Source of the DNA: Sedimenticola sp.
GTDB taxonomy: Bacteria; Pseudomonadota; Gammaproteobacteria; Chromatiales; Chromatiaceae
Assembly: GCA_027030425.1 (NCBI GenBank)
Contig: JALVEW010000013.1
Coordinates: forward strand, 1-47,844
Reading direction: 5' to 3'
DNA length: 47,844 bases
Shown here: piece after piece, positions 26,949-31,814 of the stretch
How the letters are laid out: each line of letters opens with the position of its first letter
How positions within the stretch are numbered: the stretch's first letter is position 1
The notes under the pieces: generated by a model
What the model saw: the letters and a program-made list of their open reading frames with translations, nothing else
Database searches by the model: none
What the model was told of the DNA's origin: nothing
Position numbers and translations under genes: made by a program

Positions 26949-27809
26949 ATGGATGATGCCCCGGCTCGGGTGGATGTGGTCGTCGTCAATTACAACGGCG
27001 GCGACCTGTTGCTGCGGGCGGTGGCAGCCGTCCTGGCCAGCACCGTACCCCTGCGGCTCACCCTGGTGGACAATGCCTCCACGGACGGCAGCGCGGCCGA
27101 GGTTCAAGCCCGCTTTCCCGAAGTCGTTCTCCTGCAAAACTCCCGCAACCTGGGATTTGCCGCCGCGGCCAACCAGGGGTTGCGGGCGGGAGACGCGGCC
27201 TTTGCCCTGCTGCTGAATCCGGACTGTCTTCTCCAGCCTGACACCCTGGAACGGATGCTGGAGGTGCTGGAGAAGCATCCCGAAGCCGGCATGGCGGGCT
27301 GCCGCATTCTGAACCCCGATGGCAGCGAGCAGCGTGGCTGCCGGCGGCAGCTGCCCACCCTGGCCAGCGGGGCGGGAAAGGCCTTGGGGCGGCAGCGGGC
27401 CATGGACCTGCATCTTCAGCCCCTGCCCGACACCCCCCAGCCGGTGGAAGCCATCTCCGGCGCCTTCATGCTCCTGCGCCGCGAGGCCCTCGACGGCGTG
27501 GGGCTGCTGGACGAAGGCTATTTCATGCACTGCGAGGACCTGGACTGGTGCCGGCGCTTTCTCGATGCGGGCTGGAAGATTCTCTTTGTTCCCCATGTGG
27601 AAGTGGTGCATCACCAGGGGCATTGCAGCCGGGCTGTTCCCCTGCGGGTGTTGTGGCACAAGCACCGGGGCATGGCGCGCTATTACCGCAAGTTCCTGGC
27701 CGGCAGGGCGGGGTCGTTCAGATCCGCCCTGGTGTTGCCGTCCATCTATGGGCGCTTTCTTGTCCTTGTCGTGGCTGAAGCCTTGGGCAGGCTGGCGGGC
27801 AGAAGATGA
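26949..27809 (+). CDS. Family 2 glycosyltransferase (rhamnosyltransferase-like)
   Basis: A 286-residue GT-A enzyme. VDVVVVNYNGGDLLLRAVAAV and LVDNASTDGS form the nucleotide-sugar site, NSRNLGFAAAANQG and LLNPDC the D-x-D-like region, and GYFMHCEDLDWCRRFLDAGW the acceptor-side block typical of WbbL/RfbF-like rhamnosyltransferases. A C-terminal basic/hydrophobic region (about 245-286) may associate with membrane. It starts 12 bp after the DUF3144-like gene and overlaps the following epimerase by 4 bp. The donor sugar cannot be told from sequence. Confidence 0.92.
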   Translation: MDDAPARVDVVVVNYNGGDLLLRAVAAVLASTVPLRLTLVDNASTDGSAAEVQARFPEVVLLQNSRNLGFAAAANQGLRAGDAAFALLLNPDCLLQPDTLERMLEVLEKHPEAGMAGCRILNPDGSEQRGCRRQLPTLASGAGKALGRQRAMDLHLQPLPDTPQPVEAISGAFMLLRREALDGVGLLDEGYFMHCEDLDWCRRFLDAGWKILFVPHVEVVHHQGHCSRAVPLRVLWHKHRGMARYYRKFLAGRAGSFRSALVLPSIYGRFLVLVVAEALGRLAGRR

Positions 27810-28783
27810 ATCAACGCCTGCAATCCCTGGCTGAAGGTCTGCGAGGCAGGCAAGTGCTGGTCACGGGAGCGTCCGGGCGCATCGGCCGGCGCCTGCTGCA
27901 AATTCTTGTTGCCAATGGCGTGGAACCCCGCGCCCTGTACCGGAACCCCTCCCCGCAAAGAATGACGGGCCTGCGTGTGTACCAGGGTGATTTGCTGCAA
28001 CCAGGTTCCCTGGAAGCCGTGTTGGATGGGGTGGATGTCGTGTTTCACCTGGCCAGCTACGGGCCGGCGCCCAATGATCCCCGGCCGGAAGATCATCCCC
28101 TGCACCGGACGGTGACCGTGGAAGGCACCCGGAATCTCCTGGCTGCTGCACAGTCGTCTGGCGTGGAGCATTTGTTGTTCACCAGTTCCACCCGGGTCAT
28201 CGACGGCAGCGCCAGCCTCTATGCCCGAAGCAAGCGGGAAGCCGAATCCCTGGTTCTGGCGGCGGGGCCTTACCTGGAAACCCTGGTACTGCGTCTTGCC
28301 CCGGTGTACGGTTTTGCCAGACAGGGCAGCGTTGCGCAGATGATTGCCGCCATCGATGCCGGCCGCTTTCCCTCTTTGCCGGATTTTGGGGAAAGGCGCT
28401 CCCTGGTGCATGTGGACGACGTGATCCAGGCCCTGCTGCTGTTGGCGATGGCAGAGGGGACGGCGGGAAACACCTTCACGGTGACGGACCTGCAATCCTA
28501 TTCCAGCCGGCAGATGTACGAGATGATTTGCGCCGCTCTGGGCAGAAAGCCCGGTCGCCGGGCCATGCCGGCCTGGCTGCTGGGTGTCGCGGCGGGAGCT
28601 GGTGACCTGTTACAGAAGGTGTTGGGGCGCCCCATGCCAATGAACCGGGAGCGCCTGGAGAAGCTGAGTGCTTCGGCCTGGTTCGATGGCGAGCCTCTGG
28701 CCCGGGAAACTGGCTACCGGCCACAAATGGACCTGGAAAAGGCCTTGCCGCAGATCATCAGGGAATACAGAACGGACAGCTGA
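27806..28783 (+). CDS. NAD-dependent sugar epimerase/dehydratase (extended SDR)
   Basis: A 325-residue extended short-chain dehydrogenase. The NAD(P)-binding motif VTGASGRIGRRLL is near residue 18, VFHLASYG is the fourth-strand block, and the catalytic YARSK is near residue 138, with Ser upstream in FTSSTRV. FTVTDLQSYSSRQMYEMI belongs to the substrate-binding half. It is translationally coupled to the glycosyltransferase (ATGA) and ends the forward polysaccharide run. It probably interconverts a nucleotide sugar; the substrate is unknown. Confidence 0.92.
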   Translation: MNQRLQSLAEGLRGRQVLVTGASGRIGRRLLQILVANGVEPRALYRNPSPQRMTGLRVYQGDLLQPGSLEAVLDGVDVVFHLASYGPAPNDPRPEDHPLHRTVTVEGTRNLLAAAQSSGVEHLLFTSSTRVIDGSASLYARSKREAESLVLAAGPYLETLVLRLAPVYGFARQGSVAQMIAAIDAGRFPSLPDFGERRSLVHVDDVIQALLLLAMAEGTAGNTFTVTDLQSYSSRQMYEMICAALGRKPGRRAMPAWLLGVAAGAGDLLQKVLGRPMPMNRERLEKLSASAWFDGEPLARETGYRPQMDLEKALPQIIREYRTDS

Positions 28784-28799: not shown

Positions 28800-28817
28800 G
28801 TCGGGCTTCAGCCCGAC
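28800..28817. repeat. Interspersed palindrome GTCGGGCTTCAGCCCGAC
   Basis: Perfect 18-bp palindrome with 8-bp arms in the 46-bp gap between convergent genes. It is the same family as the units at 9616, 9658 and 31815. It lacks a T tract. Confidence 0.85.
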
Positions 28818-28829
28818 AACGACACCCCG

Positions 28830-29369
28830 TCAGGGCATAAAAGGATTGAGAGAACCCATGGGCCGGGCGATTTCCCGCACGTGTACGCGCATTATCGCAA
28901 CTCCCTGGGTCATGTGCTCGAACCGCTTGTCCACGTGAGACATGCCGGCGGCCATCCTGGCCATGTCCGCGTCCATCACAGCGATGTCTGCTTCCATCTG
29001 GTGCATGCTGGAGGAGATGGACGGCATCATGCCGGCCATTTCTCCGGTGTTGTGCACGATGTTGTCCATGCGTCGCATATAGTGTTCGAACTCCTTGACA
29101 TTGTCGGTAATGCGCATCATGCGCTTGGAAACCTTCTGCATGTTGCCATGCATGGAGTCCATGTTGTCAACGATACCGTTCAGGTCTTCGTAGAGTACCG
29201 CCACGTAGTACACGTTGATGCCCGCCAGGATCATCAGCAGCACCGAAATGATGATAACGATGATTTTGTTGATGTAGAAATGGTGCTGGCGCTCGTCCAG
29301 GTGCAGCTGGGTCTCCCAGCTCAGGCGTCCCACCATGTCGATGAACATGCGTTTTTCCTTCTGTGCCAT
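28830..29369 (-). CDS. Membrane-anchored Met-rich coiled-coil protein B
   Basis: A 179-residue protein with a cytoplasmic N-terminus (about 1-33), one membrane helix (INKIIVIIISVLLMILAGINVYY region, about 34-56), then a coiled coil of about 100 residues unusually rich in Met (MDSMHGNMQKVSKRMMRI and similar). It ends with REIARPMGSLNPFMP. It is the second gene of a reverse-strand pair, 10 bp after its paralogue. I do not know the family. The architecture recalls chemoreceptor stalks or stator-like bundles but no signalling tip or enzyme domain is present. The Met spacing suggests packing within helical bundles rather than metal binding. Confidence 0.85.
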   Translation of the reverse strand: MAQKEKRMFIDMVGRLSWETQLHLDERQHHFYINKIIVIIISVLLMILAGINVYYVAVLYEDLNGIVDNMDSMHGNMQKVSKRMMRITDNVKEFEHYMRRMDNIVHNTGEMAGMMPSISSSMHQMEADIAVMDADMARMAAGMSHVDKRFEHMTQGVAIMRVHVREIARPMGSLNPFMP

Positions 29370-29379
29370 GGCGGATTAC

Positions 29380-29949
29380 CTAGGGTAGCGGGAACATCTT
29401 GTTGATGCTTCTGGCGGGCTTGGCCATGTGCTGCATATCAGCCGCCATCAGCTGTACCTGGTCATCCATGCGGCTGATGGAGGCCGACATGCCATCGACG
29501 GAATGGCGCACGCTGGTAACCTGCTTGCCCATGTTGCTGATGGTCTGGCGCATCTGCTCCATGTCTCCGGTGATGGTGGTAATTTCCTGTTTCATGGTGG
29601 TGGTCTGCTCGTCCATGAGTTGCAGCAGGGCCACCCGCCGGGCCATGGAGTCAATGTACTCGCTCATCTGATCCATGCGCACGGTAACCGCCGAGAAATT
29701 GGTGTTCATGTCCACCACCACGTCCGAGATACGGTTGATCTGGGAGGACAGGGTGAGCAGCAGTACCAGGATGGAAATGGCGATGAGGGCCAGCACGGCC
29801 ATGCCAATGCGGATGGCATGCTTGAGGTCGTCCGCCAGTTTGGCGGAAATCTCGATCTGGCTGAGCATCATGGCCTCGAAAGATCGGGCGGCGCGCAGAA
29901 GCTGCTGATCGGAAATGTGTTCGGGCTTGTCTTGTTTCTTGGAATTCAT
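29380..29949 (-). CDS. Membrane-anchored Met-rich coiled-coil protein A
   Basis: From ATG 29949 the protein has 189 residues; the frame is open farther to 30075 but the added residues look non-coding. A cytoplasmic helical part (about 1-48), one membrane helix (about 49-70) and a Met-rich extracytoplasmic coiled coil (about 71-175) precede the end MAKPARSINKMFPLP. The C-terminal motif (R/K)P-x3-(L/I)N-x-(M/F)-x-P and the layout are shared with the downstream neighbour, so they are paralogues that probably form a hetero-oligomer. No known family is recognised. The gene is divergent from tpm. Confidence 0.83.
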   Translation of the reverse strand: MNSKKQDKPEHISDQQLLRAARSFEAMMLSQIEISAKLADDLKHAIRIGMAVLALIAISILVLLLTLSSQINRISDVVVDMNTNFSAVTVRMDQMSEYIDSMARRVALLQLMDEQTTTMKQEITTITGDMEQMRQTISNMGKQVTSVRHSVDGMSASISRMDDQVQLMAADMQHMAKPARSINKMFPLP

Positions 29950-30031: not shown

Positions 30032-30688
30032 ATGGAAAAACAGTTTTGGCTGGATCGCTGGGCCGAGCAGCGCATCGGCTTTCATCTGGCTGATATCAAC
30101 CCCCATCTTCGCCGTTACTGGTCCAGCCTTGGGGTGCCGCCTGGCGGCAGGGTGCTGGTTCCCCTGTGTGGCAAGTCCCTGGACATGCTGTGGCTGAGAG
30201 ACCTGGGTTATGAGGTGCTCGGCGTGGAATTCAGCGCTATCGCCATACGGGATTTCGCCAGGGAGAATGCCCTGGCGCTGGAGACGTTCGTGGATGGGGA
30301 TTTCGTTTGTGCGCGCACCGAGAGAGTCACTCTGTTGCAGGGTGATTTCTTTCATCTCGATTCACGGTGGACAGATGAAGTTGTTGCCGTGTATGACCGC
30401 GCCGCCCTGGTGGCCCTGCCCGGGGAAATGCGCCGACGCTATGTGGCCAAGCTTGCGCAGCTCCTTGTACCGGGAACTGAAATGCTGCTGGTGAGCATGA
30501 ATTACCCACAGGATGAGATGAGTGGGCCACCTTTCAGTGTTTCAGAGGATGAGATAGCCCTGTTGTACGAAGACGCGTTCGACCTGGAGTTGCTGGAAAC
30601 AGTGGATGTGCTGGCAGCCAACCCCCGGTTGGCGGAGAAGGGTATCAGTCGCATGACGGAGCAGATCTGGCGAATATGGCGTCGCTAG
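30032..30688 (+). CDS. tpm: Thiopurine S-methyltransferase
   Basis: The 218-residue protein matches the bacterial TPMT family, which uses S-adenosylmethionine to methylate thiopurines and inorganic chalcogen species such as selenite and tellurite. Conserved blocks are FWLDRWAEQRIGFH at the N-terminus, VLVPLCGKSLDMLWL, then GVEFSAIAIRDF. The YDRAALVALPGEMR block and the late MTEQIWRI end follow. Length is typical. A ribosome site TTTGGAG lies upstream. It is divergent from the coiled-coil pair and appears monocistronic. Confidence 0.95.
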   Translation: MEKQFWLDRWAEQRIGFHLADINPHLRRYWSSLGVPPGGRVLVPLCGKSLDMLWLRDLGYEVLGVEFSAIAIRDFARENALALETFVDGDFVCARTERVTLLQGDFFHLDSRWTDEVVAVYDRAALVALPGEMRRRYVAKLAQLLVPGTEMLLVSMNYPQDEMSGPPFSVSEDEIALLYEDAFDLELLETVDVLAANPRLAEKGISRMTEQIWRIWRR

Positions 30689-30786: not shown

Positions 30787-30941
30787 CGCTGAACGCGCCC
30801 TCGCACCGGTTTCGCCGTCCATCTGCAGTTTTGGTGGTCGGGGTCAGAGTCAAATGGGGAAGATGTTGGGAAGATCCCATGGCATGGAACAGTTTGATCC
30901 CGTTTCATGTAACAGTTTGGGTGGAATTTGACTCCGACCCC
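30787..30941. repeat. 155-bp direct repeat, left copy, ending in inverted-repeat element
   Basis: This block is about 80% identical by eye to 31634-31787 and together they bracket the small cytochrome c gene. Its inner part, 30840-30941, is a 102-bp element with inverted ends GGGGTCAGAGTCAAA and TTTGACTCCGACCCC. A related 96-bp element lies at 44713-44808. A further short match, GAACATTTCACCCGG, occurs at 30692-30706 and 31618-31632. The 453-bp gap 30689-31141 holds no convincing gene apart from this. Confidence 0.88.
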
Positions 30942-31141
30942 TTTGCAAATCCGCAGCTGAACACCGGTCCCGGCACGATCATCACGTTCCCGGGTGAAAT
31001 ATTCGGGCTGGTGGGAGGGCGCGGGTTTTTCATCTGGCAGGGAACAGTGCTATCATTAGCAAGTTATGAAATACTGGTGGTGCGACAGGAATTCCGCCGC
31101 AACACTGATTCAACCTGCTTACTGACTCGAGGAATACTATC

Positions 31142-31609
31142 GTGGCAAAGAAATTTTCTGTTTCCCTTCTTTCCCTGTTGGCTGCCGCCGCCATTTCCAC
31201 CACGGCCGTTGCCGAAGATGATGTGCTGTCACGTATCAAGCCCGTGGGTCAGGTGAATGTCAGCGGCACTGCTGCCGCGCCCGCGGCTTCGGCTCCCGCC
31301 GCTCCGGCGGCCACGCCTGCAGCGGCTTCTGCTGCGCCGGCGGCCGCACCTGCCGCTGCCGCCGATCCCGGCGCTGCCGCCTACCAGGCCAAGGGTTGCG
31401 GTGGCTGTCACGGCGCCGATGGCAAGACCACGCCCATGGGTACCTATCCCAAGCTCGCTGGTCAGAGCGCAGTCTATCTCCTGGCGCAGATGAAGGACAT
31501 CAAGAGCGGCACCCGTGCCAATGGTCAGACGGCCATGATGAAGCCCATCATCGCTGGCGTCAGCGACGACGAGATGAAGGCCATTGCCGAGTGGCTGTCC
31601 AAGCAGTAA
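31142..31609 (+). CDS. Class I cytochrome c with Ala/Pro-rich linker
   Basis: GTG 31142 follows GAGGAA at a good distance. The 155-residue product has a signal peptide (SLLSLLAAAAISTTAVA), a low-complexity Ala/Pro linker of about 40 residues (about 43-78), and one haem site CGGCH near residue 86. The distal Met ligand is probably in TAMMKPIIAGVSD, followed by the closing helix DDEMKAIAEWLSKQ. This resembles cytochrome c553/c5-type electron carriers. The linker suggests a tethered or flexible domain. It is flanked on both sides by 155-bp direct repeats. Confidence 0.93.
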   Translation: MAKKFSVSLLSLLAAAAISTTAVAEDDVLSRIKPVGQVNVSGTAAAPAASAPAAPAATPAAASAAPAAAPAAAADPGAAAYQAKGCGGCHGADGKTTPMGTYPKLAGQSAVYLLAQMKDIKSGTRANGQTAMMKPIIAGVSDDEMKAIAEWLSKQ

Positions 31610-31633: not shown

Positions 31634-31787
31634 CGCTGAACACGTCCTCACACCGGTTTCGCTTCCATTCGCGGTGTTGGTGGTTGGGGGTCGGAGTCAA
31701 ACGGGGAGAATGCCGGGAAGATCCGATGGCATGGAACAGTTTGATCCCGTTCCCTGTATCAGTTGGGTGGAATTTGACTCCGACCCC
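31634..31787. repeat. 155-bp direct repeat, right copy, ending in inverted-repeat element
   Basis: Right-hand partner of 30787-30941. The inner element 31687-31787 has perfect 15-bp inverted ends GGGGTCGGAGTCAAA and TTTGACTCCGACCCC and no coding capacity. It begins 24 bp after the cytochrome stop. Confidence 0.88.
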
Positions 31788-31814
31788 TTCAGTCCGACAC
31801 CCTCATGGTGGGTT

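What the first reader, a model, noticed from the sequence alone, without database searches (positions are those of the whole stretch)
28830..29949. Paired Met-rich, membrane-anchored coiled-coil paralogues of unknown family
Two adjacent reverse-strand genes encode proteins with the same layout: short cytoplasmic helix, one membrane helix, then about 100 residues of extracytoplasmic coiled coil with very frequent Met, and a shared terminal motif (R/K)P-x3-(L/I)N-x-(M/F)-x-P. No enzyme or signalling domain is seen. Two diverged copies kept side by side imply an obligate hetero-oligomer, possibly a new envelope scaffold.
Basis: partly seen in the sequence, partly recalled or inferred. Interest (0 to 1): 0.6.

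Follow-up and report, generated by a model that had tools for sequence, protein, structure and literature searches.

The report
Paired Met-rich coiled-coil membrane struts
Two neighbouring genes encode two different but matching rod-shaped proteins that are anchored in the inner membrane and probably pair into one fixed-length strut; they belong to a widespread family with no name or known function, some of whose other pairs are built into efflux-pump operons.

Summary
Gene A (29380-29949, -) and gene B (28830-29369, -) each encode a cytoplasmic helix, one membrane helix, a heptad coiled coil of about 110 residues (ectodomain Met 12% and 17%, against 2.2% in the window) and a shared C-terminal motif. 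No Pfam, NCBIfam, PHROG or PDB family is reached; hits are generic coiled coil below cut-off.

The pair is real and constrained. In 147 genomes of the family, A and B occur in the same 53, always adjacent, same strand, A first. dN/dS is 0.03-0.16. The coil shows no length change in 30 A's (109 residues) or 30 B's (111), and the two hydrophobic patterns match best (r=0.89) at the offset that also aligns the C-terminal motif. This points to a parallel, in-register heteromer; assembly itself is not shown.

The pair is one clade of an unnamed superfamily (85 of 370 genomes of its class, plus a second group of the phylum). Sister pairs end TolC-HlyD-RND pump operons or follow a Cache/cyclase-like gene; single-gene relatives cluster with RND, ParA and dynamin genes. 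The window's pair has no conserved neighbour and no association with the family's common RND pump, so its partner is unknown. Best reading: a stand-alone periplasmic strut accessory to envelope machinery.

The parts
29380..29949 (-). Gene A (189 aa): cytoplasmic helix, one membrane helix, Met-rich heptad coil, C-terminal motif KPARSINKMFPLP
28830..29369 (-). Gene B (179 aa): same layout, C-terminal motif RPMGSLNPFMP
29370..29379 (-). 10-nt gap between A stop and B start; in the 53 genomes the gap between profile matches is 2-281 nt (A stop codon included)
29809..29910 (-). A residues 14-47: conserved cytoplasmic helix (mean column identity 0.70)
29743..29808 (-). A residues 48-69: membrane helix
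   Evidence: sequence
29422..29742 (-). A residues 70-176: periplasmic heptad coil, no length change in 30 of 30 relatives
29383..29421 (-). A residues 177-189: conserved C-terminal motif (mean column identity 0.76, coil 0.53)
29265..29348 (-). B residues 8-35: conserved cytoplasmic segment (ETQLHLDER invariant in alignment A2)
29199..29264 (-). B residues 36-57: membrane helix
   Evidence: sequence
28869..29198 (-). B residues 58-167: periplasmic heptad coil, no length change in 30 of 30 relatives
28833..28868 (-). B residues 168-179: conserved C-terminal motif (mean column identity 0.71, coil 0.52)

Best explanation
A and B are the two subunits of one inner-membrane-anchored, parallel, in-register coiled-coil strut. 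Each crosses the inner membrane once with its N-terminus inside and continues as one helix of about 110 residues (about 165 A at 1.5 A per residue) into the periplasm, where it presents a short conserved C-terminal motif at a fixed distance from the membrane. The conserved cytoplasmic helix and the C-terminal motif are the binding ends and the coil is the spacer. By analogy with sister pairs encoded inside RND efflux operons or next to a sensory receptor, AB most likely works as an accessory or scaffold for an inner-membrane transport or signalling machine, acting in trans because its own operon holds only A and B. SHOWN: coding, layout, co-inheritance, order, fixed coil length, shared register, superfamily and its contexts. 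INFERRED: hetero-assembly, parallel orientation, topology, reach. WEAKLY INFERRED: the partner and the function.
For: Same 53 of 147 genomes carry A and B, adjacent, co-oriented, A first. AB-type pairs also lie outside the family (L146, L147, L150, L181, L182, L183). A and B are separate clades with SH-aLRT 99 each. Purifying selection, dN/dS 0.03-0.16. Coil length A 109 and B 111 residues in 30 of 30 pairs; hydrophobic profiles correlate 0.89 at the offset (8) that superposes the C-terminal Pro, against 0.84 and 0.81 one heptad away and low or negative otherwise. AF2 gives one continuous helix for A (14-183) and B (2-168). Cytoplasmic end and C-terminal motif are better conserved than the coil. 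Sister pairs: OEP-HlyD-ACR_tran-F1-F2 operons with RND and F1 overlapping or within 6 nt; Cache/cyclase-like gene upstream in the own family; D singles with RND, ParA, DUF302 and dynamin genes.
Against: No direct evidence that A binds B. AF2 was run on monomers with only 7 close sequences, gives pTM 0.26-0.29, and tends to draw lone coils as straight helices; a mid-coil Pro in B (Pro116; also present in most F and E members) could mark a kink or hairpin. Equal register also follows from common descent of A and B by duplication. AB shows no conserved neighbour outside the genus and no association with the family's common RND pump (37 of 53 AB+ against 74 of 94 AB- genomes, Fisher p 0.24), so the RND link is not shown for AB. 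PDB profile matches include antiparallel designs as well as parallel trimers.
Confidence: 0.55

Rival explanations
1. AB is specifically an accessory of an RND efflux pump encoded elsewhere in the genome, as the sister F and E pairs appear to be in cis: a fourth and fifth pump component that braces or gates the pump across the periplasm.
For: F-type pairs end OEP-HlyD-ACR_tran operons in 8 of 9 loci of another group of the phylum (L171-L178) and in L185 of the own class; an E pair lies beside RND and HlyD genes (L077); D singles cluster with an RND permease. The own genome has many RND loci.
Against: AB itself is not next to an RND gene in any of 32 AB loci examined, and presence of AB does not follow presence of the commonest RND permease of the family. 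F pairs of the own family follow a Cache/cyclase-like gene instead of RND.
Confidence: 0.2
2. AB is a signalling relay: the coil transmits a periplasmic state (cell-wall or outer-membrane strain, or Met oxidation) to the conserved cytoplasmic helices, which act on a cytoplasmic partner.
For: Cytoplasmic helices are strongly conserved; F pairs follow a Cache receptor with a cyclase-like domain; E pairs and one F operon lie near STAS, RsbW-like, histidine-kinase-like and ABC_sub_bind genes.
Against: No signalling domain in A or B; no signalling gene is a conserved neighbour of AB; only a few ectodomain Met positions are near-invariant (4 in A, 6 in B), the rest exchange with other residues.
Confidence: 0.15
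3. Each protein folds back as an antiparallel helical hairpin close to the inner membrane, and the C-terminal motif acts at the inner membrane.
For: A near-central Pro in B and in most F and E members; profile matches to antiparallel designed coils.
Against: A lacks the Pro; AF2 draws continuous helices in both; the heptad phase runs through the whole coil with a single period.
Confidence: 0.15
4. Met-rich coil as a copper(I) or methionine-sulfoxide buffer in the periplasm.
For: 12-17% Met in the ectodomain.
Against: Met follows the same heptad period as the other core hydrophobics, so most of it should be buried; no copper or methionine-sulfoxide-reductase gene was seen as a conserved neighbour.
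Confidence: 0.05

Closest known systems
FtsL-FtsB (FtsLB) of the divisome
   Same: Two different bitopic proteins, one membrane helix each and a periplasmic hetero coiled coil, that assemble as a complex (PMC8749076).
   Different: No FtsL or DivIC profile match for A or B; the genome has its own FtsL elsewhere (G000:C15); the A/B coil is Met-rich, longer (FtsL and FtsB are about 100-120 residues in all, own knowledge) and ends in a different motif.
Accessory subunits of RND pumps (AcrZ; YbjP with TolC)
   Same: Small envelope proteins that join a tripartite pump without being permease, adaptor or channel (PMC13095208); sister F pairs are encoded within such operons.
   Different: AcrZ is a 49-residue membrane helix and YbjP an outer-membrane lipoprotein; neither is a coiled-coil pair, and AB itself is not RND-linked.
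Pfam DUF1664, DUF948 and other coiled-coil families
   Same: Best Pfam hits, over the coil only.
   Different: All below gathering score (best 23.8 bits against 34.6); generic coil similarity.
IcmG/DotF of type IVB secretion (NF038218)
   Same: Weak match over the coil, 28 bits.
   Different: Cut-off is 200 bits; no secretion genes were seen around the pair.

Membership tests
FtsL/FtsB divisome pair | Match to the FtsL (PF04999) or DivIC/FtsB profile | tested here: not met
   Not among the Pfam hits listed for A or B (best 25 each shown); genuine FtsL found elsewhere in the genome
FtsL/FtsB divisome pair | Two bitopic proteins with a periplasmic coiled coil | tested here: met
   Sequence layout, heptads and AF2 helices; topology itself not measured
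RND pump accessory | Encoded with RND permease, adaptor and outer-membrane channel | tested here: not met
   AB: none in 32 AB loci. Met for sister F pairs
RND pump accessory | Physical presence in the pump complex | not testable with these tools
   Needs biochemistry
Any named Pfam, NCBIfam or PHROG family | Score above the curated cut-off (PHROGs: clear full-length match) | tested here: not met
AB clade of the superfamily described here | Adjacent A then B, coil lengths 109 and 111, C-terminal motifs around P-A-R-x2-N (A) and P-M-G-x2-N (B) | tested here: met
   (a few relatives vary at single motif positions)

The most novel reading that the evidence does not exclude
A widespread, undescribed superfamily of length-locked, two-subunit trans-periplasmic coiled-coil struts that are additional components of RND pumps and related inner-membrane machines; AB is the stand-alone member serving a machine encoded elsewhere.
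Probability: 0.3. Interest if true: 0.75.

Novelty: new variant of a known kind. Interest (0 to 1): 0.5.

Why it matters
If the pair is a fixed-length heteromeric strut, it is another natural system, besides FtsLB, in which two bitopic coiled-coil proteins set up an envelope complex. Its sister pairs at the end of tripartite efflux operons would mean that some RND pumps have subunits nobody has described. The family is common in several bacterial groups, has no name, and makes clear predictions: co-purification, fixed heptad number, and the C-terminal motif as a docking site.

Tried and rejected
Pfam, NCBIfam, PHROGs: only sub-threshold coil hits. PDB sequence profiles: designed antiparallel coils, chemoreceptor and trimeric-adhesin coils, i.e. 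generic. Plasmid collection: no match for B. Conserved neighbours of AB outside the genus: none convincing; the largest shared clusters are antisense frames or a common ABC ATPase. RND as partner of AB by co-occurrence: no association; the common RND locus of the family mostly has no superfamily gene beside it. Promoter and terminator scan: no more sites than in shuffles. Fold search was not run: a lone helix would match anything. One Pfam call failed on a bad reference. The copper/Met-oxidation reading was set aside because Met follows the coil-core period. Literature searches for a Met-rich coiled-coil family or an RND-ParA-dynamin cluster found nothing pertinent.

Full report
WHAT IS THERE. 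The finding's coordinates are exact. On the minus strand lie A (29949..29380, 189 aa, starting MNSKKQDKP; close relatives start at the same place) and, 10 nt further on, B (29369..28830, 179 aa). The flanks are a convergent NAD-dependent epimerase-type gene (27806-28783, +) and a divergent thiopurine S-methyltransferase-type gene (30032-30688, +; naming by my own reading of the sequence).

IS IT MORE THAN CHANCE. Ectodomain Met is 12.4% in A and 16.5% in B against 2.2% in other ORFs of the window; the hydrophobic pattern has a period of 3.48 and 3.46 residues (heptads), never reached in 2000 shuffles. dN/dS against six genus relatives is 0.08-0.16 (A) and 0.03-0.10 (B) (some synonymous distances are near saturation). 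So the frames are real genes, and the long antisense ORFs are shadows.

THE PAIR IS INHERITED AS A UNIT. In 147 genomes of the family, profile A and profile B give strong matches in exactly the same 53 genomes, always on the same contig and strand with A first, the gap between the matches being 2-281 nt. One further B fragment lies at a contig end (G123). AB pairs also occur in other families of the class (L146, L147, L150; L181, L182, L183). In a tree of 125 superfamily members A and B are each one clade (SH-aLRT 99), so the split between A and B is old and both halves have travelled together. The tree is a quick LG+G4 tree of short coiled-coil sequences; deeper branches are weak.

THE COIL IS LENGTH-LOCKED AND IN REGISTER. 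Between fixed points near the membrane and the C-terminal Pro, all 30 A's have 109 residues and all 30 B's 111, although identities to the window's proteins fall to 39-48% in the family alignments. The family-averaged hydrophobic profiles of A and B correlate at r=0.89 at an offset of 8 residues, which is also the offset that superposes the two C-terminal Pro residues; neighbouring heptads give 0.84 and 0.81, other offsets low or negative. Conservation is higher at the cytoplasmic end, membrane helix and C-terminal motif (0.62-0.76) than in the coil (0.52-0.53). AF2 models on seven close sequences draw one helix, 14-183 for A and 2-168 for B; pLDDT is about 75 and pTM below 0.3, so this supports helix but not tertiary shape. 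At 1.5 A per residue the coil is about 165 A long, of the order of a periplasm's depth (general knowledge; in E. coli the inner-to-outer membrane distance follows the length of the lipoprotein Lpp, PMC5736177).

NOT A KNOWN FAMILY. Pfam, NCBIfam and PHROG searches give only sub-cut-off or generic coiled-coil matches. PDB profile searches give designed coils, chemoreceptors and adhesin stalks, as might be expected of any heptad sequence of this kind.

THE LARGER SUPERFAMILY. Distinct clades share the layout and the end motif: AB pairs; F pairs; E pairs; single D genes (ending like RPMSFMNSFMPW); single C genes. F1, F2, E1 and E2 coils also align without gaps inside the coil; C coils differ in length by 7 and 21 residues. 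In the pairs the upstream-type gene comes first. The own genome carries A, B, one C gene (G000:C102) and one D gene (G000:C231).

CONTEXTS. F pairs of the second group sit directly after an RND permease in 8 of 9 loci (distance -66 to +6 nt, longest-start ORFs), and the operon read in L175 is OEP (TolC-like), HlyD, ACR_tran, F1, F2; L185 in the own class is the same with a 205-nt gap. F pairs of the own family instead follow a gene with a weak dCache match and a cyclase-like C-terminus (11 of 15 loci; the cyclase identification is by my reading, not by Pfam), whose LFTGIS and GESILAFWG stretches appear to lack the usual metal-binding Asp residues. E pairs lie beside STAS and RsbW-like genes, one of them also beside HlyD and RND genes. 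D singles cluster with RND, ParA (CbiA/MipZ-like), a DUF302 membrane protein, TPR and Dynamin_N genes. The 32 AB loci have none of these neighbours, and no convincing shared neighbour beyond the genus. The commonest RND permease of the family is not associated with AB: 37 of 53 AB+ and 74 of 94 AB- genomes have it, p 0.24 (sets taken from the printed tables).

HOW IT MOST LIKELY WORKS. Shown: two constrained, co-inherited, in-register coils on membrane anchors. Inferred: they zip together in parallel and hold the C-terminal motifs at a fixed height, with cytoplasmic helices as the second binding face. Weakly inferred from the sister pairs: the complex serves an inner-membrane transport or sensing machine. 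FtsLB is the closest described arrangement (PMC8749076), but A and B are not FtsL or FtsB. AcrZ and YbjP (PMC13095208) show that RND pumps can carry overlooked extra subunits, which is what the F pairs may be.

LIMITS. No heteromer prediction, no topology data, no partner. Genomes are mostly draft assemblies, so absences are soft. Gene calls in fetched loci used longest ORFs. The RND, ParA, dynamin and cyclase assignments across loci were made with HMMs built here and checked on examples with Pfam.

Noticed in passing
window 30840-30943 and 31687-31789 (direct copies flanking the cytochrome-c-type gene 31142-31609): A dispersed intergenic repeat (GGGGTC.GAGTCAAA...AATTTGACTCCGACCCC) with about 43 matches in the genome, also on both sides of the C gene on G000:C102 in opposite orientation.
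   Followed up: partly
L131-L136, L140-L142, L063, L064 (own family), gene directly upstream of the F pair: Cache receptor with a cyclase-like C-terminus in which the stretches where metal-binding Asp residues are expected read LFTGIS and GESILAFWG; probably a degenerate cyclase. Pfam finds only the Cache part, below cut-off.
   Followed up: partly
L151, L152, L163-L166, L169, L170 (D-type loci; G000:C231 in the own genome): Recurrent cluster: divergent RND permease of up to about 1,420 aa, ParA-like ATPase, DUF302 membrane protein, TPR protein, D coiled-coil protein and a dynamin-like GTPase; no description found in the papers searched.
   Followed up: partly
L171-L178 (another group of the phylum): RND operons (OEP and HlyD genes checked in L175) that end in the two coiled-coil genes, with overlapping or nearly overlapping genes.
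   Followed up: yes
window 28800-28817: Perfect inverted repeat GTCGGGCT-GA-AGCCCGAC between B and the convergent gene, without a T run; possibly a terminator or repeat element.
   Followed up: no
L061, L066, L070, L071 (C genes): C coils differ in length by multiples of seven residues (135, 142, 163 from RWE to the motif), as if whole heptads were gained or lost.
   Followed up: partly
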